Below, one piece after another: positions 2,960 through 56,180 of a DNA stretch of 64,000 nt. A program made the translations under genes and the position numbers. The first letter of the stretch is position 1. Every line of letters starts with the position of its first letter. The notes under the pieces are model-generated. The model was not told where the DNA came from, did no database searches, and was given only the letters and a program-made list of their open reading frames with translations. This DNA is from Absidia repens. Lineage: Eukaryota; Mucoromycota; Mucoromycetes; Mucorales; Cunninghamellaceae. The stretch spans positions 1,612,001 to 1,676,000 of the forward strand of contig MCGE01000002.1 in NCBI GenBank assembly GCA_002105175.1, given 5' to 3'.

Positions 2960-3290
2960 CACACTGGAACTTTTCAAATGCCGACCACGTGGATTTTTAT
3001 TTCAATTTATTTATTGGGGGGGGGTCCCGCTTTCTTTTCATTTTCTTTCTTTTTTCTTTTTTCACCTCCATTCAACTTTTGTGGCTTATAGTGATCTTAG
3101 ATTAGTGCCAGGACTAGTTTAGAAGGGGTTTCAGGTCAGGGATTGCAACATGCATGGGGAAACCCTTTCATTTTGGATTCAAGACCTAGGGCCACCCATT
3201 CACCGGATTTTTGAAACCTTCATTAGCTTAATTTAGTGTTAGTATGTCATAGTTTGTATCTACATCTGAACCAGCCCCCCTCCCCCCGCC
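2960..3290 (+). repeat. Dispersed repeat copy A (5' segment)
   Basis: 5' part of the dispersed family. It has CACGTG at 2986-2991, a pyrimidine-rich stretch, an upstream arm GAAGGGGTTTC near 3122-3132 and the invariant core at about 3151-3180. The homology runs on through a 'TACATCTGAA' stretch and is then interrupted by a C-rich minisatellite. The first arm differs from other copies by a change that keeps G.T pairing. No coding capacity is seen. Bases 2707-2960, between the histidine kinase and this copy, hold the kinase 3' UTR with AATAAA-like signals. Confidence 0.8.
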
Positions 3291-3485
3291 TCGCCCCTGC
3301 TCGGCCCCCCCCACACACCACTCACCCCCCCACACACCACTCACCCCCACACACACCACTCACCCCCCCACACCACACACCTCCCACACACCACACACAC
3401 ACCACACACACACCACACACACACCACACACCCACACACCCACACACCCACACACCTCCCACCCCAACCACCCCCAACCACCACC
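3276..3485. repeat. C/CA-rich minisatellite
   Basis: About 200 bp of CCCCCCACACACCACTCA-type units grading into CACACACCACACA and CCACC units. It is strongly strand-asymmetric, with almost no G on the + strand. An open frame through it gives only Pro/Thr/His low complexity and is not a gene. It sits inside the repeat complex between copies A and B. Runs of G on the opposite strand could fold as quadruplexes; that is inference. Confidence 0.85.
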
Positions 3486-3635
3486 CTAATCGTCCAAATT
3501 ATAAAACAACTACTGCCTGAATAAAATATTATACAGTTTGTCTGATAGAGTGCTACTCAATGTTTTACAAAAAGTGTCATCTGTAATGTGTTAGGATAGA
3601 GAAGGTTATTAGAGTACTAAAAAAGAAAAAGCGTG

Positions 3636-3980
3636 GTGAAAAAAGAGCAGTTGGATGACTTCGCCATTTCGCACTATGGAGGGCAGCCCCTTGGGGCCCA
3701 TCCGTCGTTGCTCAGCGCTCAGTCAGGACTTGGGTATTTTTTTTTTTTTGTATGGTGAAAAAAAAAGTAGTTGAACGACTTCGCCATTTCGCACTATGGT
3801 GGGCAGCCCCTTGGGGCCCATCCGTCGTTGCTCAGCGCTCAGTCAGGACTTCGTTTTTTTTTTCTTTTGTATGGTTAAAAAAAAAAAGGCAGTTGGATGA
3901 CTTCGCCATTTCGCACTATGGAGGGCAGCCCCTTGGGGCCCATCCGTCGTTGCTCAGCGCTCAGTCAGGACTTGGTTTTT
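3636..3980. repeat. Three tandem copies of a ~118-bp unit
   Basis: Three near-identical units start at about 3636, 3752 and 3871, and a partial fourth start lies at 3994. Each begins TGGTGAAAAAA or TGGTTAAAAAA and shares about 80 bp with only a few differences, including CTTCGCCATTTCGCACTATG and CTCAGCGCTCAGTCAGGACT. Each contains the perfect palindrome CCCCTTGGGG followed by CCC. Identity is far higher than in the surrounding decayed repeats, so amplification looks recent. Open frames across the units are artefacts of the tandem arrangement. Confidence 0.9.
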
Positions 3981-4045
3981 TTTTGGCTTTTGGATGGTGA
4001 AAAAAAGAGGCAATCGCCCGACTATATGGACGGTGGCATCATTTA

Positions 4046-6096
4046 CACTCCGCTTACGCTTTATTTTTTTTTATTTATTTTTGTCTTTTTTCGCTTTTTC
4101 TTTTTTTTTGTTTTTATTTCCTTTCTCCATTCATTCTTCAATGTGCTGTGATCTTGGATTAGAATTAGAACGTGAATCAGGGGCATTTTGAAAAATGCAA
4201 TACAAACATGCATGGGGAAACCCTTTCATTTTGGATTCAAGATTTGGATCCACTCATTAGATTAGCTTCGCCATTGTTATCACTGAACACCAATAATTTA
4301 GTTTAGTGCAAGTTTGTCATAGTTTTTAACTTCATCCAAATAAAATACACTTGTCTCTTTCTATCGTTAGTTTCTTTGTTATAAGTTTAAATTGTTTGTA
4401 TTGACGAATGGGTATACATGGACATAGAAATAAATTGGTATGTTTGAGTGCGTGGAAAGAAAATGTGCGGGATATTAAGATGACTTTGTCCATCACCTCA
4501 TGTATATATTTGAACGTAGAAAAAAAAAATAGCCATGTGTTTGTGTAAGAAAAAATGCACTACAGAATATTTAGTTTGCTAGCCCCTCTGTATTTCATAC
4601 CTAGATGGGTTATGTAGAGTAGCAATGGTAGGGAAAGTCATGTTTGTGTAACTACAATTCATCTTCAGCAAAAAATGACGCCCATTTCAAATTTTTACTC
4701 AAATCGACCTGGAATCAATAGAGAAACATTGAAGATACGGTGCGAACCATCTTTCGTAGATCAGGAACGTATACTGTATATATTTTGGCAGAGAAAAAGA
4801 ATGGGCATGTGCTTGTGTGAAAAAAAATATAGAGTATTTAGTTTATTGGGACCTCTGCATTTCATCCTAAAGTGGGTTATATAGTGCCTCAGCTCATTTT
4901 CAGTGAAAAATGATATTTTCCATGATTTACAAATAAATCGTTCTCGGTGACTGTGCCTCAGTAGGGTGCAGGAGTAATAATCTCCTCTAATTTAGCAGTT
5001 TTATTCTCAGAGCTGACTTGGAAGAAGGAGACAACGGGATGAATTGATTGGTGGAAAAGAGAAATAGAGGGGTGGGATTGGGTAGAAAGCCGGCAAAAAG
5101 CAACTGCGTTCTAGCACTAGTAAGTTAGCTGGGCTTTAAAAATCTGATGACAGTTTGTCTTTAATACTGTTCAATAAAAGTATGTCTCATTTTACCTGCT
5201 TCATTAAAAATGTCTCAATCGTCTCTCTCATTGTTTTGTGTAGTAGATCCCTCTTATATATATATACACACTACGAAGATTCCTTTAGATTAGTGTTGAC
5301 AGTTGTTATGCTTCAGTGAGGAATATCCCTTTTATCTTTCTCATGACTTGTACAATGTATTAGATCCAGACTACAATGCTTCATATAGGTTACCGTTGAC
5401 CATACGTTGAATTCCCCAGAAGTCCCGCTCATGCTTTTTCTAACAGATCCTTTGTTAAATTCCTTGTTGCAATGAGCCCTTCTCCTTTAGTTTTAGTATC
5501 TACCATTCTGCTTCAATAAAATATATATTCTTTCTAATTATTCCCTTGCCCATATTATAATAAACGATGTCGGTATTGCAGCTGTTTTATTAGCTCTTAT
5601 CAAACGCCCGCTCCTTAGCTCCTCCACTGTTCACCTTCTCCCAGAGGACCAGATAAAGGTTGACAGTGCTAATTAACTTCAATATCGAAAGAAGTCCTAG
5701 CTGTCAGTGGAGCTGCAGGTATACTGGAGAGCATTTTTGTCCTGCTTAAAAAAAGACATGTTTTTTCAAGGCCGCTCCGTGCGTACTAATGCATCTTACG
5801 ATCGCCCTGTCGCTTTTAAGCTACTCTCCCTTCGGGTGACTGATTGGCTATTTTACGTCACTTCATATGAAAGATGGTGGTCTTCATATTCTTCTAATTA
5901 TATCCATCAACCAAGATTCCAGACTGGACACGCCGTATAGATCCAGCTCTTTTTTTTTTTTTTTTTTGTGATTTTCTGAAATTGGGAGTGCGAAATCGGA
6001 GCGTCTTGAGCCATACCCTGCCGGACGACTGAGAATACAGCATGAAAAATTAAGACAGCCAGAGTTTACTTTACGTTCTTGCTGAACTGCATCATA
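4046..6096 (+). repeat. Dispersed repeat copy B (long form)
   Basis: Second copy on the same strand. It has a pyrimidine-rich leader, the invariant core at about 4209-4238, and downstream homology to the other copies: ATAAAATA..TGTCTC segments, repeated CTTCAATAAA, and 'TTAGTTTTAGTATCTACCAT' near 5490. It ends near 6077-6096 with TTCTTGCTGAACTGCATCAT, the same terminus as copy D. Copy B lacks a good upstream hairpin arm. It holds an extra, internally duplicated segment (4500-4930). At 2.05 kb it is longer than copies D and F. No protein-coding content is recognisable. Confidence 0.75.
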
Positions 6097-6753
6097 TTTG
6101 AAAGGATTACTTGAAGACAGTATAACACAGATGATGTTGGATCTTATTTAAAAAGGGTTCCGCACAGGTAAAATATACATTTCTTTATATGATATGTACT
6201 AAAAACTGGGAAAGCAACACTGTATATTTATAGCATTTTACCTTTTCACAGCGTCGATCCTTTTAGTGCTCGCTCTCTCACCGTTTATCAAAACAAAGAG
6301 CTCTGAATCAGTAACAAAAATCAATAATCATACACGGCAGAGAAACTAAAAATAAAGAAACTTTGTTTGATTCCTTATTTAGTAACACTGTTTTCTGAAG
6401 AGCTTAATGGGTGCATTCCCACCCAGTCATCAAGAAAAAAAGTTCGGGTATACAATTTACCCTGAAAGTTTTTGGAAATAAGTATTCCCCCAGCTCTGCA
6501 TATGGAGGGATTATACAACACTATGGGTGATATATGTCACTGGAAAAAAAAAGGTGGGGAAAATGATTAACAAGCATGTGATAGAGGGTCATTAAGCCGT
6601 TCGATATGTGTCAATGCAATTCCAAACAAAGTTTATAGACTGAAATTTAAACTGCGTTCCTTTTTTTCCACTTCTTTTTTACTTTTTTCTTTTTCTGCAA
6701 TACCTTCTTTCACATTTCTTTTTTATTTACTTTTCTTTATTTTTATTCCTATA
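6097..6753 (+). other. Intergenic and promoter region of the acyl-CoA oxidase
   Basis: No gene was recognised. The last 100 bases are a T/C-rich tract running to the ATG at 6754, as seen before many genes in this window, and probably hold the transcription start and 5' UTR of the oxidase. Confidence 0.5.
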
Positions 6754-9510
6754 ATGTCAAACGACTACTTGAGCCAAATGGCTACTGACATTCAAGTGGC
6801 TCGTCAACAAGCCACATTCCCAGTAGAAGAATTGACGAAAACGTTGTATGGAGGTGAACTTATTCTACATGTTGTGCAAAAGCTACGTGCTATTATGGAC
6901 AAGGAACCTCTTCTGGATAGGTCACAAACAAATTATATGAACCGTGAACAGGTACATAGAGAATATATTAACAAAGCTGCTACATGACTCATCATTCTGT
7001 TTAATTGTAGATGCTTCATTATTCTCTCGTGGTGCATAAACGTCTGATGGAACTGGTGGATGAAGAGGATCTCTCGGATTTAGAATTCCAAGGACTTGTC
7101 TTGCTGTCTGAACTGATGTCTCCTCTAGGTCTTCATTACTCTGGTAAGAATACACCCCTTCCCTCGCACAAGGAAAAAGACAAATCTAGAAATACGAATT
7201 GATCCACCTTTATCTCTCTCTGTAGCGTTTATTCCTGTATTACAATCTCAAGGAACGGACGAGCAAGTAGCCAAATGGGTTGAGCCTGCTAAAAAGTTGG
7301 CTATCATGGGCTGCTATGCTCAAACTGAACTGGGGCAAGTTTTTATCTTTATTTTTATTTGGAAGATTGGAAGCCATGTGATATTAACATACACTTCTCA
7401 TTCTTAATTAATCGGTTATCTAGACATGGTTCTAACGTACAAGGACTGCGTACTACTGCCACTCTTGATACAAACACTGACGAATTCATCGTTCATAGTC
7501 CGGACTTGACTGTAAGTGCCCTTTTGCAAACAAATTCATTCATTGCCTCTAATCTGATCTCCTCTTTACTTCAAAAACTCTAGGCTGCTAAATGGTGGAT
7601 TGGAGGTCTTGGTATTGCCGCTACACATTGTGTTCTCCAGGTAAAACTTATAAAACCAAATGTTGATAATTGGAATTGACAATAGCCCAGTCAACTCCGA
7701 TACTGACTATAATATCTGATCTTTTTAGGCTCAACTCATCATCGATGGAAAATCATACGGTCCGCATATATTTGTTGTTCCTGTACGATCTCCAGGTAAA
7801 ACATTATTAGACAAGTGTATTTTACGAAAATAAGAAAATTGACTGTATTGTATAATTACCCTTTTAGTTGATCGCAAACCTCTCCAAGGTGTTACGGTTG
7901 GTGACATTGGCCCAAAAGCATATGGCGGATTTAGTACCGTTGACAATGGGTGTAAGTATAAAAACCAGAGAGAGTAAGGGGGTGGGCAGATGAAAATGGA
8001 TATGCATTTTGACTAAACGATTCTTTTCTTTTGTTGTTTATTTTTATTTATAGTTGCACTCTTTGACCACGTTCGTATTCCACGAGAAAACATGCTGATG
8101 AGATTTGCCCAAGTGACAAGAAATGGGGAATATATTCGGCCAGTACATGACAAGTTATCTTATGGTAGTATGGTCAAATTACGTGTGGGAATGGTGGCAG
8201 ACGCTGGTATTAAACTTGGCAAAGCAGCAACTATTGCGATTCGTTATTGCACGGTGCGGCGACAATTCCACGACACGGCGACAAAGGACGGCAGCAAAAA
8301 GGACAAATTGGAACAACAAGTGATCAGCTACTCTTCGGTCAAGCACAGACTCTTCCCATTGGTGGCGGTGTCTTATGCTTTACTCTTTGCTGGACAGAGT
8401 GTGGGTGCCGATTTTGAAAAGATGACCAAACAACTGTTGAATCAAGATGCCAGCATGCTCCCTGAAATGCATATTACCACGTGCTCTCTCAAGGTATGGT
8501 GTACTCGCCGATCTACGGATGGTCAAGAAGAATGCCGCAAAGCAATGGGTGGGCATGGATACTCTCAATTCAGTGGGGTGGGACAACTCTTCGCTACCGC
8601 TGTACCTTCCAATACGTACGAAGGAGACAACTATGTGCTATGTCAACAAGTAGGTCGGGCACTCTTGAAACAATTGCAAGTGGTCTCTGATGGAACGAAG
8701 ATTGAATCATCCAATGCGTCATACCTCAATCTGCTGCTTTCTGATATACCTCATACTCCTTACAAGCTGAATAATCCCTACCACGATATTCTGGACCCCA
8801 AGATACAAGAAAATATCTTTGGCTTACGTGCTGCTCGTCTTGTGGCTGATCTTGGCAAGCAAATGAAATCAGGTCGTCCCTGGTCAGATGTCAATATGGA
8901 ATGTTGGAATGTTTGTTTTGCTCATGCTGAATACAATTTAGTCCGACAATTCAATCAACGTGTTGCTGCTGTGTCCGCTAAGACTCCTTCGTTGGCAAAA
9001 GCAATCACTCAATTAGCCAATTTGGTAAGTTTTCATTTATTTATTTTCGGAACGAAAAAAGGCATTTCTTCACTTACCTGACATTTATTTTCTGCTCTAG
9101 TTTGCTATTAGTATTATCACTCAATCATCCATGGCAACATTCTTGTCCACTGGCACTCTTCAATCTACTGATTTGGATGGAATTCAAGCTCAATTCCGTC
9201 AACTTCTCGACCAGGTTGCTGAAAATGCTGTACCTTTGACCGATGCATTTGGATTTACTGACCGTGAACTGACAAGCGCTTTGGGGTCATATGATGGACG
9301 GTCCTATGAGCGCCTTTGGGAAGCTGTTCAAAAAAATCCTTTGAACAATGAAGCTGGACGCAAGGAAATAGATGTAAGTCCCCCCCAGCTGAAAAAAAAT
9401 TGCATGATTCAGATCACTCAATGCTGTATTATTACATATATCATATATAGGCCGTCTTATTCGATTTGTTGCATCACGGCAATAATCTGACCCTCTCGTC
9501 CAAACTGTAG
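6754..9510 (+). CDS. POX1: Peroxisomal acyl-CoA oxidase
   Basis: Catalyses the first, FAD-dependent, H2O2-producing step of peroxisomal fatty-acid beta-oxidation. Ten exons: 6754-6951, 7011-7143, 7226-7334, 7424-7511, 7584-7640, 7729-7795, 7868-7951, 8054-9024, 9101-9373 and 9451-9510. They total 2040 nt, giving 679 aa, the usual family length. Visible are CYAQTELGHGSNVQGLRTTA (flavin-binding middle domain), AKWWIGGLG, KAMGGHGYSQFSGV and TYEGDNYVL, whose Glu matches the catalytic base of acyl-CoA oxidases. The protein ends SSKL, a canonical PTS1 peroxisomal signal. Intron 3 (7335-7423) only restores the TELGHGSN motif if it is read as a GC-AG intron (donor GCAAGT). An alternative such as acyl-CoA dehydrogenase is unlikely, given the C-terminal oxidase domain and the PTS1. 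Confidence 0.96.
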
Positions 9511-10479: not shown

Positions 10480-10770
10480 AACATGTTACCAAGCAGTCAG
10501 ATATCTGTAGATAAATCCAGGCAGACCAACCAACACATCTGACGCAGCATTCATCACAAGTCAATTGGGACCGTACAGTACTAAATCCTAGATCCAAAAT
10601 GAAAGGGTGTCCCCATGTACTTTGCCATCCCCTTTTTCGAAACCCTCTAATCTAACAAACAATCCCACTCCATGATCACCAGACCCTCAGAGGATATTAA
10701 TGTGGAAAAAAAAGAAGAGAAGAAAAAGAGATTTCACGGTTTTTAAAAATTGAATTGAAATTCCGCATTA
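10480..10770 (-). repeat. Dispersed repeat copy C (diverged fragment)
   Basis: Minus-strand fragment of the dispersed family. The core is recognisable at about 10591-10620, read on + as CCAAAATGAAAGGGTGTCCC. It is followed by a degenerate second arm and the purine-rich complement of the leader (10705-10730). The CACGTG box is lost and only ACCGTGAAA-like sequence remains. This is the most decayed of the eight copies. Confidence 0.7.
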
Positions 10771-19389: not shown

Positions 19390-22300
19390 ATGTCAGGCGA
19401 ACATCCCAACAAGTACGAGCTTGGTGATTCTACCAGCAGTAGCAGCAAACACTCTAACCGCGACAAAGTCGAAGCCATTGATCAAGACACAACCAACGAA
19501 AAGCTTCCACAACATGAAAAAAATGGTGCAGAACATCTTCCTCACATGCAAAGTTTGACAGTGGAAGAACTCTATGACAAGGAAAAATTCGATTTATCTA
19601 CAATGGAACCTGGTGATGTTTTTGCCTTATTACAGTAAGTCCAAAATAAAATAGAAAAAAGGGGAAGTCAGGCAATGATATAATACGTTATATAAATTAA
19701 CAACCCATTTTCTTTCTGTAATAGAACATCAACTGATGGTCTTACATCTGAAGAAGCTGCTTCACGTATTGAAAAATTTGGCCACAACCGTCTGGAGCAT
19801 AAGGAAATCAATCCCTATTTGCAATTCCTTGGATTTATGTGGAATCCTTTATCTTGGGTGATGGAGGCTGCTGCTATTGTGGCCATTGCATTATCAAATG
19901 GTGAAGGTGAACCTCCTGATTGGGAAGACTTTATTGGTATCATCCTCTTACTGCTGGCAAACTCTATCATTGGCTTTTTGGAAGAACGACAAGCTGGGAA
20001 TGCTGTCAAGGCGTTGATGGAATCATTGGCCCCTGAATGCAAAGTCAAGCGTGATGGTGAATGGCATACAATGGAAGCAGCAGAACTAGTCCCTGGTGAT
20101 GTGATCAGTATCAAATTGGGTGATGTGATTCCTGCTGATGGTCGGCTTATTAAAGCGCATGGCCAGGTTTCTATCGATCAAGCTGCTTTGACAGGTGAAT
20201 CCTTACCCGTGGGCAAAGATGCTGGTGACGAAATCTTCTCTGGATCAACCGTTAAACAAGGTGAAGCGGAAGCAGTGGTGATTGGTACCGGCCTCAATAC
20301 CTTCTTTGGACGTGCTGCAAAACTGGTGGGCGATGCAAACGATGGCATGGGACATTTGCAACAAATTTTGGCCAAAATCGGTAACTTTTGTCTGGTGTCC
20401 ATTGGTACCTTTGTTGTGGTTGAAATTTTGGTCATGTATCCTGCCTTCCATTACTCATACCGACGTGGAATTGACAATATATTGGTGTTGCTCATTGGTG
20501 GTATTCCTATTGCCATGCCTACTGTGCTGTCTGTTACTCTCGCTATTGGTGCCAAACAACTCGCCGAACACAAAGCCATTGTCACTCGTATTACTGCTAT
20601 TGAAGAAATGGCTGCTGTCACCATCCTTTGCTCCGACAAGACGGGTACACTGACATTGAACAAGCTTATTGTGGACAAACCAACCATCAAAACCTACAGC
20701 GATTTATCCACGGAGGACGTGATTCGAATCTCTGCCTACGCCTCTCGTACAGAAAACCAAGATGCCATTGATTTCTGTATTGTCAACTCTCTTCCGGACC
20801 CAACTCTTGCCCGCGACGGTATCGAGGAATTGGACTTTGTGCCCTTCAATCCAGTCATCAAACGAACAGAAATCACGTACAAGCAATCATCAGATGGAAA
20901 GACGCTACGCGCGACCAAGGGAATGTCCCACTTTATTTTGGATCTGTGTACCCGTGACAAGACTGAACAACAAATCCAAGCTTTGAATGACGATGTGGAT
21001 GAATTTGCTCGGCGGGGTCTGAGGTCACTCGCAGTCGCGGTGGATGAAGTTCCCTCTGGACAACCTGATGGTGAAGGTGTTGGATTCCGTCTCGTTGGTC
21101 TTTTACCCATCTATGATCCTCCTCGCTCCGATACCAAGGAAACAATAGACCGTGCCATTGCTTTGGGTGTGCAAGTCAAGATGATTACTGGGGACCAGCT
21201 CGCCATTGCCAAGGAAACAGGTCGACGGCTAGGTATGGGTGACAATATGTTCTTATCGAAAACGCTCAAGGAAGGCCCCCCTGCTGGTTCCGGCTACTCT
21301 ACTTTGGATGATATGGTTTTGGGTGCCGATGGGTTTGCTGGTGTCTACCCGGAACACAAGTATGAAATCGTTGAAAGACTACAAGCATTAGGACACATGA
21401 CAGCAATGACAGGGGATGGCGTCAATGATGCACCGGCGCTTTCCAAATCCAATGTGGGTATCGCAGTTGCCGATGCATCCGATGCAGCACGATCAGCAGC
21501 GGATATTGTTTTGACTGAACCTGGGTTATCTGTCATCATCGAAGCATTGATCCATTCTCGCCAAATCTTCCAACGTATGCGGAATTACTCGATTTACACT
21601 TGCTCAGTGACGATTCGTGTGGTTGTTGGCTTTGCGGTGATGTGTTTTGCCTTCCAGTATGATTTCCCTCCTTTTATGGTGCTTATTTTAGCCATTCTGA
21701 ACGACGGTACTATTATGACCATCTCTACTGATCGGGTCCGGCCATCGCCCCATCCAGATGCTTGGAATCTATTTGAAATTTTCTCTTACGCCATTGTCTA
21801 TGGTCTCTATCTTGCCTTGTCCACTGTCTCCTTTTATTCTGTCATCTACAAGACCAACTTTTTCCAAGCCAAGTTTGGGGTGGACTCGTTTGCAGGTGAT
21901 CCCGCCAATGGTATTCCTCCCGACCCCAACAATGGTATTCTACACTCTGTCATTTATCTCCAAGTGTCGACGATTTCGCAAGGGCTGATTTTCGTTACTC
22001 GATCTCAGGGGTGGTTCTTCACGGAACGTCCGTCAGTGTTGCTCATGTGTGCATTTGTAGTGGCTCAACTCGTGGCGACGTTTATTTCGGTGTATGCAGA
22101 TTGGGGATTCACTAAAATTGCAGGCTGTGGCTGGACATGGGCAGGTAAAAAACTAAAAAAAAAAATTAGAGTCGTGTCATGTGCTTTACTTTAAAAACCG
22201 TTCTCTTATTTTGGACCTGTAGGTATTGCCTGGATTTGGAACTTTATTTGGTTTGTACCATTGGATCTGATCAAATTTGCTATGCAACGCATCTTCAAAC

Positions 22301-22860: not shown

Positions 22861-24036
22861 TCCAGTTTAGCGAAAAATGATGATTCAAGTTCCGCCCACG
22901 TGAAAGTTTATTTACCCCCAATTTTTTCCCCTCTCTTCTCTCTTTTTTCCTTCTTTTTTTTCTTCATCATTCAACATCATTGAGGCTATGGTGGACTTGG
23001 ATTATTGTCAGGACTAGTTTAGAAAAGGTTTCAGCTCAGGGATTACAAGATGCATGGGGAAACCCTTTCATTTTGGATTCAGGATTTTGGACCACCATTA
23101 GTGTTGGCTTATCATAGTCTTCATTAGTTTAGTTTAGGTGTTAATATGTCCCAATTTGTATATACATCTGAATAAAATATGTATCCTTTTATCTGCTTCA
23201 ATGAAAAATGACCCAATAGTCTCATTCATGTCTTACGCTATAGATCCTTAATCACTTCATCAATCCCTGTTGATCAGTATCTATTGGTTGTGCTTCAATA
23301 AAGGCAACCCTTTATCCTTTCCCATGTCTTATTTCTATGGCATAATGGATTCGTTTTTACTGTAGACCCTTTATATTAGTATTGACCATTCTTCAGATCT
23401 ACCAGTAGTCTCCCTCCTACTTCCTCCATTAGATATCTTGTTACATTGAATATCCCCCTGCCCTCCGTTTGGTATTTATCATATTCTTTCAAAATAAAAT
23501 ATTCCTTTTTGTCACCCATCCTCTGATCAATTAGATAATGAGAAATGCTGCTATTGTAGCTGTTTTGGAGTGCTCTACCAAGCATCTTCTCTCTATATAC
23601 CGACTTTGGCTATATCTTTTTTATTTTCTTTTTTGTTGAAGATCCACAAACCACTTACTATCAGATATGACCATATTTTTGCTCAGACAATAATATAATA
23701 AACTTGAATTGTGCCGTGTGCATCATCTTCACTATAGAGTTTTGAGCTGTTTTATAGCTTATCAATGACTGACTACTTGCCCCTCCCATGAGGCCAATTG
23801 GTGGATATTTCTATGTTATGTGGTCCTATTATCACACTAGCGCTTATATCTATCCACTAGGCCATGTCTTTGACGTAACTTTCATTAAAAAAAAAAAGTG
23901 ACCAAGCTGAATGCAGTTGAGCGCAAGGGTGTCTCCCTGACATCTAGTAGATGGATTTTTCGCAAGTGTGAGAACGTTTTGAAACTGAAAATAAAAAATT
24001 ACAACCAACTTTACATTCTTGCTGAACTACATCATA
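22861..24036 (+). repeat. Dispersed repeat copy D (nearly complete, ~1.18 kb)
   Basis: Best-delimited copy. The left end TCCAGTTTAGCG at 22861 resembles the complement of the right end TTCTTGCTGAACTACATCAT (24017-24036), an imperfect terminal inverted repeat. Inside are CACGTG at 22897-22902, a 60-bp C/T-rich tract, the hairpin arm GAAAAGGTTTC, the core at about 23051-23080, then about 900 bp with repeated AATAAA/AATGAAAAAT and ATTAGTCTC phrases. A motif GTGTGAGAACGTTTTGAAAC lies near 23968. No open frame of note. A non-autonomous DNA transposon is the simplest reading. Confidence 0.8.
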
Positions 24037-25160: not shown

Positions 25161-26179
25161 ATCTGACAAGTTTGAAGTCTTCATCAGCAAGGGGGTGTTG
25201 CTTTGGCTTAGCGATTTAGTTTAAATTATATATTATGTAGTTTAGCACAAACATTAGCTTTTAGTATTTTGGTGGTTAATGCATACGAATAAAATAGCAA
25301 TAGTAATTTTTTTAATATGATGTCTTTTTTTTTTTTTTTGAAGAACGGTAATCTTGTTTGAAAGGGGATCCTTTTGTTTGAAGAGAGTGGTTTGTTTGTT
25401 AGTTTGAAATGATGATGTGGTACAATACATGCTCAAAATATTACCCTGCAGAAATGGGCCAAAAAAAAAAAAGGCAGAGAAAGGCTATGGTATAAGCAGG
25501 ACATACTATGATGGAACGGGTTGCGAAATATAATACAATGGAAAATGGATGGGGATGTTGAGGATTGGATTGAACCTAGTATCATGAATAAAAAAAATCC
25601 CGCACAATATCCCAAAAGATAAATTTTGATCATGATAAGAGTTTGATAGTTTATTGAGTGAAGACAGAAATAACAAAGAAAACACTAAAGGGACTACATA
25701 TATATTGCTGCTAAAACTACGGTAAAAAGGACGCCTGATACCTATATTATCACCAAAACTAAAACATAGGTCAATACGGGCACATCAATAAAATACCAAA
25801 TCATGAGTACTTACCATTTGAATAAACCCCCTTGCCCTTGATACTCCCGATGTCCTTGCCGGCTTGATCATTTTTGGTCTCAGTAGGAGCAAGGACCGTC
25901 ATGCAGGGCGTACATAATATACAAATACAAAAGACAATACGTTGTTTTCCTGGGTCGAATATACTGGAGATGTGTAATCGATTGTTTTCTTCAGACGATA
26001 ATGATATAGCAATAACGCTAGTTCTGCAGCGAATAAGGGGAGATGGTTTAAATTGTCTGATAAATAGGCAGAAAGAGGTGGTGTTTCAATGAAATATAAA
26101 GCGTGAGGTATCTAAATCTATATGTTTGTTAGTGAGACGAAAGGGATAACTTTTTTGAAACAAAATAATTAATCTAAAG
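25161..26179. other. Intergenic, no gene seen
   Basis: AT-rich sequence with T- and A-runs. Part of 25600-26179 may be a further decayed 3' portion of repeat copy E, but the match is too weak to bound. No coding evidence was found. Confidence 0.4.
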
Positions 26180-26770
26180 GGGCGGTAGAAAAAGGAATGT
26201 CTTGCGCTATACATGAGAAAGTCTGATGGGAGACGTTTATTAAAATATAGCAACGGTCGGTACTAATCTCAAGGAAACATAATAAAAAGGATCTATTGTA
26301 CAAGACACGAAAAGAGAGCAAAAGTGTCATTGTAAAAGGCAGGAGAGAGAAAGAGGGAGAGAGGGAGTTTATAGCAGCATGTAAACAGAATCTATTGCAC
26401 AATGTATAAGAGAAGTAAACTGAGACATTTTTTCATTGAGTTAAGTAAAAATAGTCATATTTTATTTTGATCGATACAAAATATGGACAGACTAACACTA
26501 GACTAAGCTAATGAAGGCTCCAAATAGCCAACTAAAGGTGGTCTAAATCCTGAATCCAAAATGAAAGGGTTTCTCCATGCATCTTGTAATCCCTTATCTG
26601 AAAACCCTTCTAAATTAGTCCTGACACTAATCTAAGTCCAACATAATGCTATAGAAGTTGAATGGTGAAGGGGAAGAAAAAGAAAAAGAAAGAATGCTAA
26701 AAAATTGAAAATAGGTTCAAATAAAAATCCACGTGTGCGGGGTGTGAAAATTTTACCTTGGTTTTTTTTT
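26180..26770 (-). repeat. Dispersed repeat copy E
   Basis: Minus-strand copy. Read on the minus strand it has CACGTG (26731-26736 on +), a leader tract, arm GAAGGGTTTTC, the core at about 26551-26582 with one substitution (GGAGAAACCC), then the ATAAAATATGACTAT and AATGAAAAAATGTCTC phrases and the GATCCTTTTTAT stretch (26287 on +). The left limit is a conservative estimate. It is inverted relative to copy D across RPEL copy 2. Confidence 0.75.
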
Positions 26771-31249: not shown

Positions 31250-32298
31250 GCAAACCAAATCCACACAAGAGACAAAAAGAAGGCAATTCAGATCCCGCCC
31301 ACGTGAATATTTATTTACTGTCAATTTTTTTCTCCCGCCCTCCTCGTTTTCTTTTTTCCTTTCATTTTTTTCTTCATCAATCAACTTCATTAAGGCTATT
31401 GTGGACTTAGAACAGTGTCAGGACTAGTTTAGAAAGGGTTTCTGCTCAGGGATTACAAGATGCATGGGGAAACCCTTTCATTTTGGATTCAGGATTTGGA
31501 ACCCCCATTAGTCGGCTCTTTGGAGCCTTCATTAGCTTAGTTAGTGTTGGTTTGTCCATAGGTTGTATCAACATCTGAATAAAACATGTCTCTTTTTACT
31601 TCCTTCAATGAAAAATATCTCATTAATCCTTCTCATTTCTGATACAATATGCATCTCTTTTTACTGCAATGACTTCTTTGATTAGGGTTGACCGTCGTTG
31701 TACTTCAATAACAGATGTCCCTTTAGTCTTTTTCATGCCTTTTTCCATATATTACCTCCCGTTTCATAACCGGCCCTTTAGAATAGTGTTTACCATTTTT
31801 CAAAGCTTACATTAGTCTCCTTCACGCTACCACCAACCAATAAATCCTTTGTTACAATATGAACCCCCCTCATTTATTAGTTTTACTATCCACCTACATG
31901 CCTCAATAAAAAATACCTTTTTATTAATAATCCTCTGATTCATCTTCTAACAAACAATGCCGATATTCTGGTTGTTTTGTGAGAATCCCACTAAGCACTA
32001 CCTTTCTAGTTCAGCTGCTATGGCTATTCTCATCCCGCGTGAACCACAAAGGCATTCAATGCCCTATTCCCACTCTACCATTCACGTCAAGAAACCTGGA
32101 CCTTGTCTCGAGCGTAACTCCGCCAGACTAAACATACTGTATACCTTCTGCTCATTATTATTTTTTATTTGTCTTGCATGTTGTACAGTACAATAAAAAA
32201 AAAAGTACAAACGAAATTCAGTTGACCCACCGCCACTAATGTTGCAAGGCAGGGCTTCTAATTCCATCAAAAACTATACTTCACTGACATCGAGGAGA

Positions 32299-35803: not shown

Positions 35804-38800
35804 ATGGCATCCAATGATCCATCAAAAAATGGTATTCCACCTTCATCTCATGACGCAGAAATACCTGATGGTCAATCCGTACCACCTACAGGCCAAGAAA
35901 AGGAAGGAGAAGGGAACATGCCATCAGTGAATGAAAAAACAACAAACGCACCAGCCCTCAACACGGATGCTTCTGGTGCTCCCGGTGTCAATGCAAATCA
36001 ACAAGGCGGGGAATCAGTGCCTCCTACTGATCTATCTGGCGCAAACAAAGAAATGCCATCAACCACTCCTTCCCAGCCCCAACCCACGTCAAATGGTAAT
36101 CTACCTGAAATGAAATCGTTGACTGTGGAAGAACTTTATGATAAGGACAAGTTTGATTTATCGACTATGGAACCGGGCGATGTTTTTACTCTATTACAGT
36201 AAGTATTTTAATTTTTAAAATGCCGACTTTTTTTTTTTGTATAATTCTCTTCATTTTACTGACGGGTTTCGTTTCCTTTTTTTTTTTTTTTTTTTTTTTT
36301 ACTTGAATTGACAGAACAACAACTGATGGTCTTACTGAAGAAGAAGCTGCATCACGTATTGAAAAGTTTGGGCATAACCGTCTGGAATCCAAGGAGCAAA
36401 ATCCCATTTTGATGTTTCTGGGTTTCATGTGGAATCCATTGTCTTGGGTTATGGAAGCTGCTGCCATTGTTGCTATTGCTGTCTCTAACGGTGGTGGACG
36501 TCCTCCTGATTGGGAAGATTTTATTGGTATCGTTCTCTTGCTACTGGCGAATGCTACTATTGGGTTTTTGGAAGAACGGAATGCTGGCAATGCAGTCAAG
36601 GCGCTCATGGCATCTCTGGCGCCTGAATGCAAGGTCAAACGCAATGGAGTTTGGGAAACAAAAGAAGCCGCTGAATTGGTGCCAGGTGATATTGTCAGTA
36701 TCAAACTTGGTGATGTCGTACCTGCCGATGGAAGATTGGTGACTGCCCATGGTGATGTCTCCATTGACCAAGCTGCTTTGACAGGTGAATCGCTTCCAGT
36801 GACAAAAGATGCAGGCGATGAAATCTTCTCTGGGTCTACTGTTAAGCAAGGTGAAGCTGAAGCAGTAGTTATTGGCACCGGTCTTAATACCTTCTTTGGT
36901 CGGGCGGCGAAATTGGTTGGTGAATCTGGTGACGATGTCGGACACTTGCAACAAATTTTGGCCAAGATTGGTAACTTTTGCCTTTGCTCCATTGGTCTCT
37001 TCATTGTGGTGGAAATCTTGGTGATGTATGCTGCCTTCCGTTATGACTATAGGCGGGGTATCGACAATATATTGGTGTTGCTCATTGGAGGTATCCCAAT
37101 TGCTATGCCTACAGTGTTGTCCGTTACTCTTGCTATTGGTGCCAAACAACTCGCTGAACACAAAGCCATTGTTACTCGTATTACTGCTATTGAAGAAATG
37201 GCTGCTGTCACCATCCTTTGCTCCGACAAGACAGGTACTCTGACATTGAACAAGCTCATTGTGGACAAGCCAACCATCAAGACATATGCCGAATTCGACA
37301 ATGAAGGCATCATTCTGATCTCTGCTTATGCGTCTCGTGTGGAAAATCAAGATGCGATTGACTTTTGTATCACGAACTCTCTACCAGATCCGGCCATGTC
37401 CCGTGCGGATATTGAAGAATTGGAATTCAAGCCCTTCAACCCTGTTATCAAGCGAACGGAAATTACTTACAGGGACAAGGATGGCAAAGTCAAACGAGCA
37501 ACCAAAGGGATGTCACATTTTATTTTGGATCTATGTACCCGCGACAAGGATGAGGCTCAAATCAAGGCGTTGAACGATGATGTGGATGAATTCGCCCGTC
37601 GTGGTCTTCGATCTCTTGCAGTGGCGGTGGACGACGTTCCTTCTGGTAACCCTGCAGATGAAGGTACTGGCTATCGTTTGATTGGTCTCTTGCCTATTTA
37701 TGATCCTCCTCGCTCTGACACAAAGGAAACAATTGATCGTGCCATTGGATTGGGTGTTCAAGTCAAGATGATTACCGGTGATCAATTAGCTATTGCAAAG
37801 GAAACGGGTCGACGCTTGGGTATGGGTGAAAACATGTTTTTATCAACGACATTGAAGGACGGTCCTCCTCCAGGTAGTGGATACCATGATGTGGACGACT
37901 TGGTCTTGGGTGCGGATGGGTTTGCTGGTGTGTACCCTGAACACAAGCACGAAATTGTTGAACGTTTGCAAGCTATGGGACATATGGTGGCCATGACAGG
38001 TGATGGTGTCAACGATGCTCCTGCTCTCTCCAAAGCTAATGTGGGTGTTGCGGTGGCAGATGCTTCTGATGCTGCACGTGCTGCAGCCGATATTGTGTTG
38101 ACTGAACCAGGTTTGTCGGTGATCATTGAAGCCTTCATTCACTCACGGCAAATTTTCCAACGCATGCGGAACTACTCTATTTATACTTGCTCTGTCACCA
38201 TTCGTATTGTACTTGGTTTCTCCATCATGGTCTTTGCATTCAAGGCTGACTTTCCTCCTTTCATGGTGCTAATCTTGGCCATTCTGAATGACGGTACCAT
38301 CATGACTATTTCAACCGATCGTGTCAAGCCATCACCACAACCTGATGCTTGGGATTTATTTGAAATCTTCTCCTGTGCTATCATCTATGGTATCTATTTG
38401 GCTGCTTCAACGATCGCATTTGTTGCTACTGCATTGAAAACAACTTTCTTCCAGCGCAAATTTGGACTCCATCCCTTCATTGATCCCAATGACTTCATGC
38501 TTCACTCTGTTGTCTATCTTCAAGTATCCACCATCTCACAGGCATTGATTTTCATTACTCGATCTCAAGGATTTTTCTTTATGGAACGACCCTCTATTTT
38601 ATTGATATGTGCGTTTGTGGTGGCTCAACTGGTGGCGACCTTTATTGCAGTTTATGCCAACTGGGGATTTACTCAAATTCATGGATGCGGATGGGGTTGG
38701 GCAGGTGTAGCTTGGATCTGGAACTTTGTGTGGTATGTGCCTCTGGATTGGATCAAGTTTGGCCTACAACGACTCTTTAGAAGCCGTCATCCCAGTCCTG

Positions 38801-39158
38801 TTACTGACGCTGCTTCTCTCAAACGCCGACGTTCCTCTGCTGCCTCTATTGCTGCCTCTGCCATGTCAGGTGCTGGTACAACCAACTCTGCAAGATACTA
38901 CCGCAACCGTACCAAATCTCTTCGACAACTTGAAACTCCTAATAGCTTTAGACAGCGCCTATTTGGAAATGGTCGCTCAGTCTCGATGAATCCCAAAGAA
39001 TTACGCCGGTTATCATCTGTACAGGTAAATAGTGAAAAAGGGACGGGATATTATTGAATTTACTGGATTCTCAAACTAATATCTTTTTTTTTTCCTAGGC
39101 AAGCAATGCGTCTAGAATTCTATCTGGTGGTGGTGAAGCTAGTGGCTCAAGGGCTTGA
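35804..39158 (+). CDS. PMA1: Plasma-membrane H+-ATPase (P3A P-type), copy 2
   Basis: Proton pump paralogous to 19390-22635. Exons 35804-36198, 36315-39024 and 39099-39158 total 3165 nt, giving 1054 aa. It has the same catalytic motifs ([38 protein letters not shown]). Its N-terminal extension is longer and Pro/Asn/Gln-rich (about 110 residues before [20 protein letters not shown]) and its C-terminal tail is longer and Ala/Ser-rich ([17 protein letters not shown]). The first and last introns match copy 1 in position and phase, but the intron of copy 1 at WTWAG|IAWIW is missing here. Divergence is concentrated in the tails, where regulation of these pumps occurs, so different control of the two pumps is likely (inference). 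Confidence 0.97.
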
Positions 39159-42100: not shown

Positions 42101-42155
42101 GTGTGTGTGTGCGTGTGTGTGTGTGTGTGTGTATGTGTGTGTGTGTATATATATG
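42084..42155. repeat. (GT)n microsatellite
   Basis: About 70 bp of GT/ATGTGT repeats ending in TATATATATG. It overlaps the apparent stop of the sorting nexin frame. The rest of 42101-42866 is the convergent 3' region of the sorting nexin and Caf40 genes and holds no gene. Confidence 0.9.
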
Positions 42156-51909: not shown

Positions 51910-53228
51910 CTAACTAGTAGAGGGCAATAGGTCGGACCTTGAAGATAGAAGTAGTGCAGGAGATGCAGAAGAATACTGAATTGCCGCTGCAGCCCCCATA
52001 TAATCTTGAGGGTGATGATTTGAGATTGAATTTGTTGAAGAAGTTTGAATATTATTCGTAGATGTAGGAGAAGAAGAGAGTGGTGAAGATGCTATTGATG
52101 ACAATGATGATTCTGATGTGACAATTGGGTGCTGATGGCTATTGTTGTTGTTATTGTTTTTACTCTCGTTTATCAAATTAGTAGATGGAGGCAAAAGAGG
52201 TGGCGGCATCATGATAGGCTGGCCAGGTGGTAAAGGACGATTTAAGACTTTGATGGTGGAATGTTTGTTGAGAGGACAGTCCCTGTGGCTCCATAACATA
52301 TTTCGTAGTTGGATCAATTCGTCACGCATCATGTTGCTTTGTATTTGTAATTGCTCATTATCATTTGTCAAGTATTCCACTTTGGTTTGTAAATTGTTGA
52401 GCCACTGTTTTTTCCTTTGTCGACATTTTAGCGCCGCTATTTTTTTTTTTTTAAAAAAAAAAAAAGAAAAAAAAAAAGAAAAGAAAAGTTTAATGTGCGA
52501 TGTATGAGTATTATTAGTATTAGTATTATTATATATACTACTATTACTATACCTTGTCGATTTCGTTCTAAAAAGTTTTTTCGTTTTTCATCATCATCCA
52601 TATATTTGGAAGCCTGGGACTTTCTTTTTTTTGTTGCAAGTTTTTTATCATCTTGTTGATGCCGATGTCTGTTAGAGGATAATTTCGAATTGGATTTCAT
52701 CGAGTTAGTGATAGCAGGTGAGCATTCATTGGAGGTATACATAGGATCTGACCAAAGCATAATGACAATTTATAATGGTGGGACATAAAAAGTAAGAAAA
52801 TAAAAGAGTAAAAGCGTCCATCGTTTTTAAAAATAAAGGAGCCAAGTTATATTTGGGCGGAACGATCGGACAAAAATTCGGATATGCATAAAAGAGAAGA
52901 ATATAAAAAAGGAAAAGAAAGCTTCATTTTAGTAAAAAAAAAAAAAAAAAAAAGTCAACCCGTTCCTCCCTAGTTCTTTTTATTTGAGACCGTTAAATAT
53001 CAGATAATTTTTTATCACCGAAATCAACTCCTTTTTATTGGGTTGGTCATACTTACGTTTATTAGATACACCGGTATTTAACGATGGCATCATTTCAATA
53101 CTAGATATCGGTGTGCCTGACGAAGGTGTCGCTGGTAAAGGAGGTAGAGCCGGTTTATCGTTGTTACTGAAAAAACTTTGTTCAAATGGATTGAATTCTT
53201 GTTCTAATGCTACTATTATAGGATTCAT
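51910..53228 (-). CDS. bZIP transcription factor (Atf1/CREB-like)
   Basis: A 297-aa protein in three exons (53228-53057, 52747-52553, 52436-51910; 894 nt). The start MNPIIVALEQEFNPFEQSFF is chosen over upstream hydrophobic sequence, which is a T-rich leader. The bZIP domain crosses the second intron: KRKNFLERNRQ | AALKCRQRKKQWLNNLQTKV, then leucine-zipper heptads (VEYLTNDNEQLQIQSNMMRD, ELIQLRNML). The basic region matches the Atf1/ATF2 type that binds TGACGTCA-like CRE sites and in other fungi acts below the stress MAPK. The zipper ends with HRDCPLN, typical of fungal Atf1. N- and C-terminal regions are Ser/Pro/Asn-rich and unstructured. It may respond to the same HOG pathway as the histidine kinase in this window (inference). 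Confidence 0.9.
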
Positions 53229-53779
53229 ACATAAATAAGTTGATAATAAAATGAGAAAGAAGGAATAAAATAAAAAAAAGAAGTAAAAGAAGGAATGAAT
53301 AGTTTTAAATCGAGAAAGAAACCAGATGGTCAATGCAAAAAGAATGATCAGGAACTCCGCTCTTGCATTCTATCGTGTCATTTGTTTTACAGGAGTGGGC
53401 TCCAGATACAACCACTTCACTCTTCAATTCCAAGAAGATATCGCAGTCTTGACGCTTCCACAAAAAAACACCAATTTTGCTAGGTCTCAGGTCGGGGTGT
53501 TGAGGTTTGTGGGACAGGATTAGACGCCTTCAGCAATTCATACACTTTGATGGCAGCCCCTGCGGATTCAATCTCCCGAACCCAGTGTGTTATTTTCTCC
53601 AATAGCATCTACAAAACACAAACCTCGTGTGCAAGAATCATTAATATGCGTAGTCTAATCAGAGAGGGTACGCTCTTATACAGTAAGTGGCAAACTCTTT
53701 TACAGTTGCCAAAATAAAACAAATTGCTCCATAACAGAGTCCATAGCCATCATTCAAAAAAATACCAGAGAGGGTGTGA
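53229..53779. other. Intergenic, promoter side of the bZIP gene
   Basis: A short frame at 53326-53523 has no family features and no leader. The region leads into repeat copy G. Confidence 0.4.
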
Positions 53780-55130
53780 ATATTTCAAATCCCGCACACG
53801 TGAAATGTTTCGTTTTCTCTCTCCCCGCCTTTTTTATTTTTTCGGCTCTCTTTTTGATTATTTTTTTTTCTTCATTTTTTTTTCTTCACCATTCGACCTC
53901 TATGGGAATATGACGGACTTATATTAGTGCCAGGATTAGTTTAGAAGGGTTTTCAGCTCAGGGATTACATCATGCATGGGGAAACCCTTTCATTTTGGTT
54001 TCAGGATTTGGGACCACCATCAGCTGGCTTTTTGAAGAAGTCTCCATTAGCTTAGTTTAGTGTTAGTTTGTCCATTCTATCTACATCTGAAAAAAATATG
54101 TCTCTTTTTACATGCTTCAATGAAAAAATGTCCCATTAGTCTCTCATGCCCCGTATAGTACAGTATTATAGAATCTCTTTTTACGTCGCTCCTTTATATT
54201 CGTTGTGAGTGTAGTTGTGTTTCAATAAATGATACCCGACTGGAGTATTTCTCCTGACTTGTATTGCACATTACATTAGTCTCCATTTTACAAATGTCCT
54301 TTTAGATTAGTGTTGGTCATTCATCAAATCTTACATTAGTCTATTTCATGTTACCTCCACCAGATCCCTTGTCGTAATGAACCCACCCACCCACTTTCCG
54401 CTCAATATTTATCGATATGCTTCAATAAACTATATCTTTTAATTAACCATCTTCCGACACATTAATTAGTATGAAAAGTTGTTATTGTACCTATTTTATG
54501 AGTATCCTTTCATACACCTGCTTCCTAGCTCATCCACTTTGATTACGTCCCCGCGGGCGCTCAGTGGCTGATCAACCGTCCTAGGACACTTAATATCAAA
54601 CTTTACCTCTACCTTATTTCAATGCAGCCATATATATCAATGAACCTAAGTCGCCTCATGGGCATATCGAGGGCTATATAGTACTGCATTGAATCTTTCC
54701 TACCCCGCTTTCTGGCTAACACACTGCCATTATAAAAAGGGGGCTCGTTTATTTTTTCAAGGAACACTCTACCAAGCATACTAAGGCACCAAATTGTCTT
54801 TCCGTTACTAGAAGTAATTCTCCTTTCCGAGCGATTGAATGGAAATTCTAAGTAGCTTGATATGAAACGAGTCGTTATTCCTATTCTGTCATTCATGCTA
54901 TTGCCAAGGCCTTACTGCCAGCGTAGCTTTATGACTGGATATACTTTATATTTCCAGCCCGTTTTTTTTTTTTTTTTTTTAATTGATGTGGAGAAATGAA
55001 AATAAAAGACAAACCCATATTGAAGCCATTTAGACCCCAATGGGTACCCTACAAAGGGTGCGGAATGGCAGGAGTGTGAAATTCTATCAAAAACTGTACT
55101 TCAGCTATTTTCCCCATGACCTGTAATTTT
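53780..55130 (+). repeat. Dispersed repeat copy G
   Basis: CACGTG at 53797-53802, a pyrimidine-rich leader, arm GAAGGGTTTTC, the core at about 53973-54002, and then the longest run of family phrases: ATGTCTCTTTTTACATGCTT, TTTCAATAAA, ATTAGTCTCC, CTTCAATAAA. A T tract lies at 54963-54980, and AATTCTATCAAAAACTGTAC (55080-55099) is shared with copy F. The right terminal repeat is not recognisable. Confidence 0.8.
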
Positions 55131-55589
55131 ATTTCCAGTAAATTTAAGATAACAAACTAAATTGTTAAATATATAAACCAGTTCTATACCAACTACAAAC
55201 CCAATTTCTCAAAAAATATCATAGCATTGTCGACACCCGAGGTATACTACGGTAAAGTATATTATCATTACTGTATTAAACTTTAATAATTTAACGAAGG
55301 AAATTTCCTGTAGTGTACAGTAGGAAGACTCAGCAGATTTATATGGTATGAATGCTGCATTTTACGACAGTATACTTTATGTCTTTACTGTATCGTTACC
55401 GCATACATGCGATATAATTACTATATTCTTGACCTTCAAACGGTAAATTGGGCTTCAGTAAGCTAACTGTTTTCAGTATAATACCGACCAAGTCATGCTC
55501 TCACCAAAATATAAAACTAAAGACTAACAATTATCCCGTACCGTCGTTGAGCGAGTCCTAATTACTGCCAAAACACAATAGAAAAAATA

Positions 55590-56180
55590 AAAGCATCTAA
55601 TAAAATACCCAGAGACGTAACCCGCGCCAGTAACAAACAGCAAAAACACACGTAATGAATCTATCGTAGGTCGCATGAGGGACATGAGGCATACTATTGT
55701 AGATCTGATTAATGGTCAACAATAATCTAAAGAGACACTGTAAAAGGAGATCTATTATACTATACAAGATCATTTCTAATCTAGAGGAGATGGTACAAGA
55801 CATGAGAGAGACTAATGGAACATTTTTTTATAGAAGTATGTAAAGAGAGACATCTTTTATCGATAGGTAAAAAATAAAGGAAAAATTGACACTATACTAA
55901 AATAAGCTAATGGAGGCTTCAAAAAGCCAACTAATGGCAGTCCTAAATCCTGAATCCAAAATGAAAGGGTTTCCCCATGCATCCTGTCATCCTGAGCTGG
56001 AAATTCTTCTAAACTAGTCCTGACACCAATCTAATATCACCATAACCTCAAAAAGGTTGATATGGTGAATAAAAAAAGAAGGAAAAAAAAAAAAAAAAGA
56101 TAGGCGAAAAAAAAGCGTGAGTAAATAATATTCACGTGGACGGGATTTGAATGTTTTTTGTGGCGTCTTGCTAAACTGCA
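55590..56180 (-). repeat. Dispersed repeat copy H
   Basis: Inverted copy, tail to tail with G. CACGTG is at 56133-56138, the core at about 55951-55982, and the first arm is degenerate. Its outer end TCTTGCTAAACTGCA (56166-56180 on +) is complementary in sense to the family's right end, giving the clearest evidence for terminal inverted repeats. It retains the AAAGAGACATCTTTTATCGA and GAGAGACTAATGGAACATTT phrases. Its left limit is uncertain; 55131-55589 between G and H may hold more decayed sequence. Confidence 0.8.

What the first reader, a model, noticed from the sequence alone, without database searches (positions are those of the whole stretch)
2960..56180. Dispersed non-coding repeat family with a near-invariant core and CACGTG-led architecture
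Seen: eight copies (A about 2960, B 4046, D 22861, F 31250 and G 53780 on +; C 10770, E 26770 and H 56180 on -) share CACGTG, a 60-110 bp pyrimidine tract, a potential hairpin and the core GGGGAAACCCTTTCATTTTG, followed in the fuller copies by about 0.9 kb with repeated AATAAA-type phrases. None encodes a recognisable protein. A fixed internal order of elements without coding capacity suggests either a non-autonomous mobile element or a transcribed non-coding RNA family with its own promoter and poly-A signals. I know of no named element with this layout.
Basis: partly seen in the sequence, partly recalled or inferred. Interest (0 to 1): 0.75.

Follow-up and report, generated by a model that had tools for sequence, protein, structure and literature searches.

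The report
Thousands of non-coding copies, one core
A fungus carries thousands of scattered, mostly old, non-coding DNA units with different front ends but one shared short stretch that has changed much less than the DNA around it, which suggests that the stretch does something, though what it does is unknown.

Summary
The eight copies are real (8 places, 0.01 expected). They belong to a huge family: the 21-base core occurs 4,541 times at up to 2 mismatches in the 47.4 Mb genome, very probably Absidia repens. Six of eight window copies have CACGTG; B and C have other heads. At least four different heads are joined to one shared stretch of about 85 bp around the core. The main type is about 780 bp: E-box/CCCGCC head, pyrimidine tract, shared domain, tail with AATAAA-like signals. 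No predicted coding segment overlaps the 37 units examined. Copies D and F have no close relative (71-82% among the best-scoring), yet 28 of 28 hits of an upstream-only profile keep the core at 0-3 mismatches. Pieces of subfamily B's unit are at least 92% identical at 13 other loci, so it spread recently. Best reading: a non-autonomous, promoter-bearing mobile element whose domain, probably part of a short Pol II transcript, stays under selection in old copies. Transcription, function and mobilising machinery are not shown; TIR, TSD, LTR, tRNA and Rfam tests were negative; coding has no clear support.

The parts
2957..3270 (+). copy A, 5' part: E-box head (CACGTG at 2986-2991), pyrimidine tract, domain, core 3156-3175; broken off at the position of the first poly-A signal
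3271..5180 (+). B unit, about 1.9 kb, lying inside copy A; carries copy B; about 95% identical to locus L006 over 3447-3883 and 3753-5183
3639..4009 (+). three tandem copies (about 120 bp) of a GC-rich head module (TTTCGCACTATGGNGGGCAGCCCCTTGGGG), upstream of core B
4039..4362 (+). copy B (another subfamily, no CACGTG), core 4214-4233
5125..5636 (+). 3' part of a main-type unit without core, probably the displaced tail of copy A; its first bases may belong to the end of the B unit
10578..10731 (-). copy C (third subfamily, no CACGTG; its two C1 relatives carry GCGGGATTTCAATTGG in the head, C itself GCGGAATTTCAATTC), core 10595-10614, 1 mismatch
22864..23617 (+). copy D, near full length, core 23056-23075
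26373..26767 (-). copy E, core 26557-26576, 1 mismatch; tail partly decayed
26169..26318 (-). remnant of the tail of copy E
31264..32045 (+). copy F, full length, core 31466-31485
53761..54557 (+). copy G, full length, core 53978-53997
55791..56171 (-). copy H, core 55957-55976; tail decayed
55657..55768 (-). remnant of the tail of copy H

Best explanation
This is a very large family of dispersed, non-coding units in Absidia repens, its main type old. Each unit has three modules: an exchangeable promoter-like head, a shared domain of about 85 bp holding the core, and, in the main type, a tail with repeated AATAAA-type signals. SHOWN: copy number, different heads on one domain, no overlap with predicted coding segments in the sample, lack of close relatives for the two main-type copies tested, recent spread of subfamily B, and slower change of the core than of its flanks in copies found without using the core. 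INFERRED: (1) the units spread as non-autonomous mobile elements whose RNA is made by RNA polymerase II from the head and ends at the first AATAAA (about 200-240 nt) or a later one; (2) the shared domain is the functional part of that RNA and is read by a common host or element factor; (3) after insertion many copies went on as functional short transcription units, so the domain stayed under purifying selection while the rest drifted.
For: 4,541 places with up to 2 mismatches and 1,232 exact, 0 for the reversed control. Upstream-only profile: 28 of 28 hits keep the core at 0-3 mismatches, 27 mismatches in 588 bases; P about 2e-15 at the 14.7% divergence of neighbouring sites, if copies are independent. 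Downstream-only profile: 26 of 30 hits that begin within its first 60 positions keep it (the other four are told under evidence against). E-box-head 22-mer at up to 4 mismatches: 23 of 23 in 264 kb are followed by a core within 100-260 bp. 12 loci on other contigs, taken from the 100 exact heads listed: 12 of 12 keep a core. Conserved blocks coincide with a promoter-like head (CCCGCCCACGTG), the domain and AATAAA. The 39 best-scoring non-self matches of D and of F are 71-82% identical, in a flat series. Variable sites of 59 copies are almost unlinked (nearest neighbour 0.703 against 0.682 permuted). At least four heads on one domain. B-unit pieces at least 92% identical at 13 other loci. No coding overlap. 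Substitutions are not RIP-like: C to T 474, T to C 386.
Against: No RNA data at all. No TSD, TIR or LTR signal in 18 near-full copies, so the way of moving is unknown. RNA structure is weak: RNAalifold -4.7 kcal/mol on 48 copies; arm-swap z about -2, but a control reaches the same and a second putative hairpin pairs worse in own than in swapped arms (z +2.1); genome-wide 2x2 counts 283/17/11/2, Fisher P 0.18; no column pair with an excess of standard pairs exceeds the permutation maximum. Core divergence is about 7% per site, so constraint is partial. Two of 35 profile hits spanning the core have a shortened, damaged core. Of the four downstream-only hits without a core, one (C1 73619) has its core just outside the span scanned (C1 73577, 2 mismatches), one is the displaced tail of A, and two are weak hits (under 28 bits) with no core. 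The profiles were trained on 27 copies that had been found by their core. The 28 upstream hits include one inverted duplicate pair, so 27 are independent.
Confidence: 0.5

Rival explanations
1. Purely selfish mobile element. The shared domain is needed only for mobilisation and was kept in the active source lines; old copies are junk without host function.
For: Several heads joined to one domain and a recently spread subfamily B are what module-swapping non-autonomous elements show; type II copies and L006 sit in tandem arrays.
Against: D and F have no close relative among the best-scoring matches genome-wide, so they look old, yet 28 of 28 upstream-selected copies keep the core. Neutral decay should be even along the unit, but identity runs from 0.73 to 0.94 by block.
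Confidence: 0.25
2. DNA-level cis element. The domain is a binding site (transcription factor, insulator or replication-origin factor) scattered through intergenic DNA; transcription of the unit is secondary.
For: No overlap with predicted coding segments, about one per 10 kb, conserved as primary sequence with little covariation.
Against: The fixed order of head, tract, domain and AATAAA is strand-directed, and the AATAAA block is itself conserved. Spacing is close to random (CV 0.93 and 0.78).
Confidence: 0.17
3. Core kept alike by gene conversion or recombination between copies rather than by selection.
For: Variable sites are almost unlinked between copies, and conservation falls with distance from the core on the 3' side.
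Against: The head motif near -175 and the AATAAA block near +115 are as conserved as parts of the domain, with poorer blocks between; conversion tracts centred on the core would not do this.
Confidence: 0.05
4. Micropeptide gene: frame ATGCATGGGGAAACC (MHGETLSFWIQDL...) or ATGGGGAAACCC (MGKPFHF...).
For: In the first frame 16-41 codons are open from the ATG in seven of eight window copies. In the second frame synonymous changes are somewhat more frequent than expected, 12 of 39 (0.31 against 0.19), one of three frames tried.
Against: In the first frame 9 of 44 changes are synonymous, as expected without selection (0.20 against 0.22; 75 copies). The length of the G run differs in L057 and C1 79921, which shifts the second frame (read). 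Stops differ between copies. No protein shares three 5-residue words with the 41-residue peptide of copy H (a short query, so sensitivity is low).
Confidence: 0.03

Closest known systems
SINEs carrying a highly conserved domain (HCD: V, CORE, Deu and others), PMC6887750
   Same: Dispersed, non-coding, a few hundred bp, with different heads joined to one conserved inner domain (the V domain is about 120 bp) whose conservation is unexplained (introduction read).
   [quoted passage not shown] SINE heads come from tRNA, 7SL or 5S genes; here the heads look Pol II-type, with no tRNA or Rfam match. No LINE-like tail or TSD was shown here.
WEIRD non-coding RNA and MINE chimeras of Magnaporthe grisea, PMC2104539
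   Different: There 33 bipartite chimeras and one tripartite, with WEIRD copies fused to LINE or SINE sequence and flanked by direct repeats; here thousands of units without TSDs, and a listed RT gene lies within 10 kb of only 4 of 38 B-like loci.
tRNA- and 5S-related SINEs of Aspergillus fumigatus, PMC5063351
   Same: Fungal short non-coding dispersed repeats.
   Different: They have tRNA or 5S heads and TSDs of 4-14 bp (start of abstract in the search listing only); neither was found here.
C. elegans 21U-RNA (piRNA) loci (recalled, no call)
   Same: Thousands of dispersed small Pol II units that share a short upstream motif.
   Different: There the motif is a promoter element and each product differs; here the conserved stretch would lie inside the transcript.

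Membership tests
SINE (including HCD-SINE) | head derived from a Pol III RNA gene (tRNA, 7SL, 5S) | tested here: not met
   ARAGORN 0 genes in the window; Rfam 0 at gathering over the window and 0 at E up to 5 for copy F
SINE (including HCD-SINE) | target site duplications | tested here: not met
   longest direct repeat across the ends 6.9 bp own against 6.7 bp swapped, 18 copies; copies are old, so loss is possible
SINE (including HCD-SINE) | tail shared with a LINE of the same genome | not tested
SINE (including HCD-SINE) | conserved central domain shared by families with different heads | tested here: met
   four head types; type II and F share -49..+35 at 82%, type III and F -111..+37 at 68%, II and III -37..+49 at 77%
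MITE or other TIR element | terminal inverted repeats | tested here: not met
   longest inverted match of the ends 6.7 bp own against 6.8 bp swapped, 18 copies
LTR, solo LTR or TRIM | direct repeats at the ends | tested here: not met
   no plus-strand self match in any of 18 near-full copies; this does not test the solo-LTR case, which has no second repeat
Helitron | 5' TC and 3' hairpin plus CTRR at exact ends, Rep/helicase partner | tested here: inconclusive
   ends are fuzzy; a TC stands near the left end, no constant CTRR was seen by eye; partner gene not searched
Protein-coding gene family | conserved reading frame | tested here: not met
   varied stops, 0 of 19,946 bases in predicted coding segments, no protein hit; synonymous share as expected in two frames and slightly raised in the third
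Structured ncRNA family | compensatory base changes | tested here: inconclusive
   weak, not beyond controls
Transcribed Pol II unit | transcript with cap and poly-A | not testable with these tools
   no RNA data held

The most novel reading that the evidence does not exclude
One fungal genome holds some 5,000 individually constrained short Pol II units that make one RNA domain from several unrelated promoters: a domesticated mobile family acting as a dispersed non-coding RNA system, larger than any non-coding RNA gene family I know of in fungi (recalled).
Probability: 0.25. Interest if true: 0.85.

Novelty: new variant of a known kind. Interest (0 to 1): 0.6.

Why it matters
Why some mobile repeats keep a highly conserved inner domain is an open question, described for animal SINEs (PMC6887750). 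Here is a fungal case with thousands of copies, little subfamily clumping in the main type and several heads on one domain, so constraint can be measured copy by copy. A close strain or sister species and one RNA-seq set would tell selection on old copies from selection on the mobile source alone. If the copies are functional units, a compact fungal genome carries a large unrecognised RNA or cis-regulatory layer.

Tried and rejected
Coding reading: not supported; in one of three frames synonymous changes are slightly raised (12 of 39). Rfam, tRNA: nothing. TIR, TSD, LTR: nothing. RIP as cause of divergence: rejected, C to T 474 against T to C 386. Hairpin covariation: tried by alifold, arm swap, genome-wide 2x2 counts and column pairs; weak. 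In favour: the stretch -36..+14 folds better than mononucleotide shuffles in 88% of 58 copies (-13.1 against -8.7 kcal/mol). A tRNA primer site after the tract, an A-box-like stretch and point-centromere likeness were considered by eye and dropped: the motif is not conserved between subfamilies, or the copy number is far too high. Even spacing (origins): no, CV 0.93 and 0.78. RT partner: of 38 B-like loci, 4 have a listed RT (150 listed of 213 candidates) within 10 kb (2.4, 5.8, 6.9 and 9.6 kb), so no consistent neighbour. Other collections: 0 exact 23-mers in viral contigs and in prokaryote genomes; both are poor places to find a fungal repeat. Papers: eight searches listed no description of this element; this covers open-licence PMC text only.

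Limits of the sample: detailed alignments rest on the window, C1:1-200000, 25 further C1 loci chosen by an exact core (core-biased) and 12 short stretches chosen by the E-box head (12 of the 100 places listed; 40 prepared). Dropped before counts: L006 tandem cores (3) and one of the inverted pair at C1 148483/149190 in the covariation tests; L062 (indel); 13 of 61 aligned copies below 62% identity to the consensus as other subfamilies; hits under 60 bits in the gene-context count. DNA searches score only the best 40 candidates (of 3,444, 3,456 and 907).
Full report
OBSERVATION. The stated core occurs at all eight loci of the window (6 of 8 exact, 2 of 8 with one mismatch; 0.01 expected). The window is C12:1612001-1676000 of a 47,368,516-base genome in 79 contigs. 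In that genome the 21-base core GGGGAAACCCTTTCATTTTGG has 4,541 places at up to 2 mismatches (reversed-pattern control 0) and 1,232 exact places. If mismatches are Poisson this means about 5,700 copies and 7% change per core site. A protein of Absidia repens in the protein collection lies on a contig of 3,895,514 bases, exactly the length of C1, so the genome is very probably Absidia repens.

ANATOMY. The main type runs from about -200 to +560 around the core. Near-full copies number 18 in the 264 kb made of the window and C1:1-200000. Order: TTTCAAATCCCGCCCACGTG head, pyrimidine tract, TTCACCATTCAAC, domain, core, ACCACCATTAGTTGGC, ATCTGAATAAAATATG, then further AATAAA-like modules. Sharing between copies, measured by BLAST, drops from 12.5 to 1.7 of at most 33 partners at -200 and from 5.5 to 1.9 at +550. 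CACGTG is exact in 6 of 8 window copies. Copies B and C, and several copies on C1, belong to other subfamilies. Head 2 is a GC-rich module, often tandem: all 10 modules found in the fetched sequence, at 5 loci (two of them fetched because of a core), stand 303-672 bp before a core on the same strand, and the module has 560 places genome-wide at up to 3 mismatches. Head 3 (copy C and two C1 copies) carries GCGGGATTTCAATTGG in both C1 copies and GCGGAATTTCAATTC in C, close to the reverse complement of the main head's TTTCAAATCCCGC. Head 4 (C1 97658 and 53462) is different again. Across types the best shared stretch is about -50 to +35 (82% for type II against F over 85 bp, 77% for II against III, 68% for III against F over 155 bp). 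CCCGCC/GGCGGG resembles an E2F site and CACGTG a bHLH site (recalled).

NESTING. Copy A breaks off at the poly-A signal position, and a 1.9 kb unit that carries the GC modules and copy B follows (3271 to about 5180). After it comes a core-less 3' part (5125-5636) that fits as A's displaced tail, although its first bases may belong to the unit. The same unit, about 95% identical, stands at L006; its left junction there is at the matching position of another core-bearing unit (profile position 325 against 326), but the right flank in L006 gives no profile hit. Pieces of 3271-4210, about 250-750 bases long, are at least 92% identical at 13 other loci, L006 among them (40 of 907 candidates scored). 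Subfamily B has therefore moved recently. RT genes are not consistently near: 4 of 38 B-like loci have one of the 150 listed RT matches within 10 kb.

AGE AND CONSTRAINT. Copies F and D used as queries over the whole genome give 39 listed non-self matches each, 71-82% identical, in a flat series of scores (40 of about 3,450 candidates scored). At variable sites the nearest neighbour among 59 copies is hardly closer than in permuted columns (0.703 against 0.682). The main type thus looks old and nearly star-like; only these two copies were tested genome-wide. Without using the core for selection: an upstream-only profile finds 28 hits in 264 kb, and 28 of 28 keep the core at 0-3 mismatches (27 of 588 bases changed). 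A downstream-only profile gives 30 hits beginning within its first 60 positions, and 26 of 30 have a core at 0-3 mismatches; of the other four, one has its core just outside the span scanned (C1 73577, 2 mismatches), one is A's displaced tail and two are weak. All 23 E-box heads with up to 4 mismatches are followed by a core. 12 of 12 loci chosen by an exact E-box head on other contigs keep it (0-2 mismatches in 11; 4 with an indel in L062). The profiles themselves were trained on core-selected copies. Against this, 2 of 35 profile hits spanning the core have a shortened, damaged core. Identity to consensus by block, 25 copies: head 0.90, tract 0.82, 5' arm and loop 0.90, core 0.94, +24..60 0.81, first AATAAA block 0.88, +200..540 0.73-0.76. 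Even neutral decay would not give this profile. RIP is not the cause.

WHAT IT IS NOT. No predicted coding segment overlaps any of 37 units (0 of 19,946 bases, while such segments cover about 30% of the sequence; home-made hexamer predictor trained on 25 long ORFs). For a 41-residue peptide from copy H no protein shares three 5-residue words; stops differ between copies; synonymous changes are 9 of 44, 12 of 39 and 9 of 43 in the three frames against 0.22, 0.19 and 0.22 expected. No Rfam family, no tRNA. No TSD, TIR or LTR signal in 18 near-full copies.

RNA OR DNA. A hairpin GAAGGGTTTTC with GGGAAACCCTTTC can form in most main-type copies, and -36..+14 folds better than its shuffles in 88% of 58 copies. 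Own arms pair slightly better than swapped arms (P 0.08 for 58 copies, 0.03 for 18 with variant cores), but a control reaches P 0.05, and a second putative hairpin pairs worse in own arms. Genome-wide counts for one pair were 283, 17, 11 and 2 (odds ratio 3.0, Fisher P 0.18). In the column-pair analysis two pairs exceed the permutation maximum of 25.1, both short-range and without an excess of standard pairs; the best pair with such an excess reaches 22.0. RNA structure is therefore possible but not shown. The directed order of head, tract, domain and AATAAA is the main argument for a transcript.

MECHANISM. Inferred: Pol II starts after the tract, reads the domain and stops at AATAAA. The RNA or its gene was mobilised by an unknown partner, with heads exchanged on the way, and many old copies remain functional. 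The strongest rival is a purely selfish element whose domain matters for mobility only. A DNA-level binding site is third.

KNOWN KINDS. The nearest analogue is the HCD-SINE: different heads on one conserved domain (PMC6887750, outline and introduction read). It fails as a SINE on the Pol III head and on TSDs. WEIRD/MINE of Magnaporthe (PMC2104539, passages read) is a smaller, LINE-linked case. A Mucoromycotina genome paper (PMC7928374, passages read) mentions Tc1/Mariner, LTR, L1, DIRS and Helitrons, and its main text has no word beginning with SINE. A survey of TEs in 625 fungal genomes (PMC6416283, passages read) does not mention Absidia in its main text.

CHANGES AFTER CHECKING. The head-3 motif, the identity range of D and F, the RT distances, the L006 right flank and the downstream-only hits were mended. 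The codon-wise count raised the micropeptide rival from 0.02 to 0.03, taken from the DNA-element rival (0.18 to 0.17).

Noticed in passing
window 3639-4009: GC-rich module TTTCGCACTATGGNGGGCAGCCCCTTGGGG in 120-bp tandem; 560 places genome-wide at up to 3 mismatches, upstream of a core at all 10 places in the fetched sequence.
   Followed up: partly
window 19696-22194 and 36307-39057: Two P-type ATPase paralogues of the plasma-membrane H+-ATPase type, same strand, 16.6 kb apart.
   Followed up: no
window 14-2603: Hybrid histidine kinase gene with HAMP, HisKA, ATPase and receiver domains; three 260-bp repeats at 14-905.
   Followed up: no
L006 380-820: Three tandem units of about 100 bp, each with a core of up to 3 mismatches, just before the B unit.
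   Followed up: partly
L045, C1 148483 and 149190: Two very similar core units in inverted orientation 0.7 kb apart, perhaps a recent local inverted duplication.
   Followed up: no
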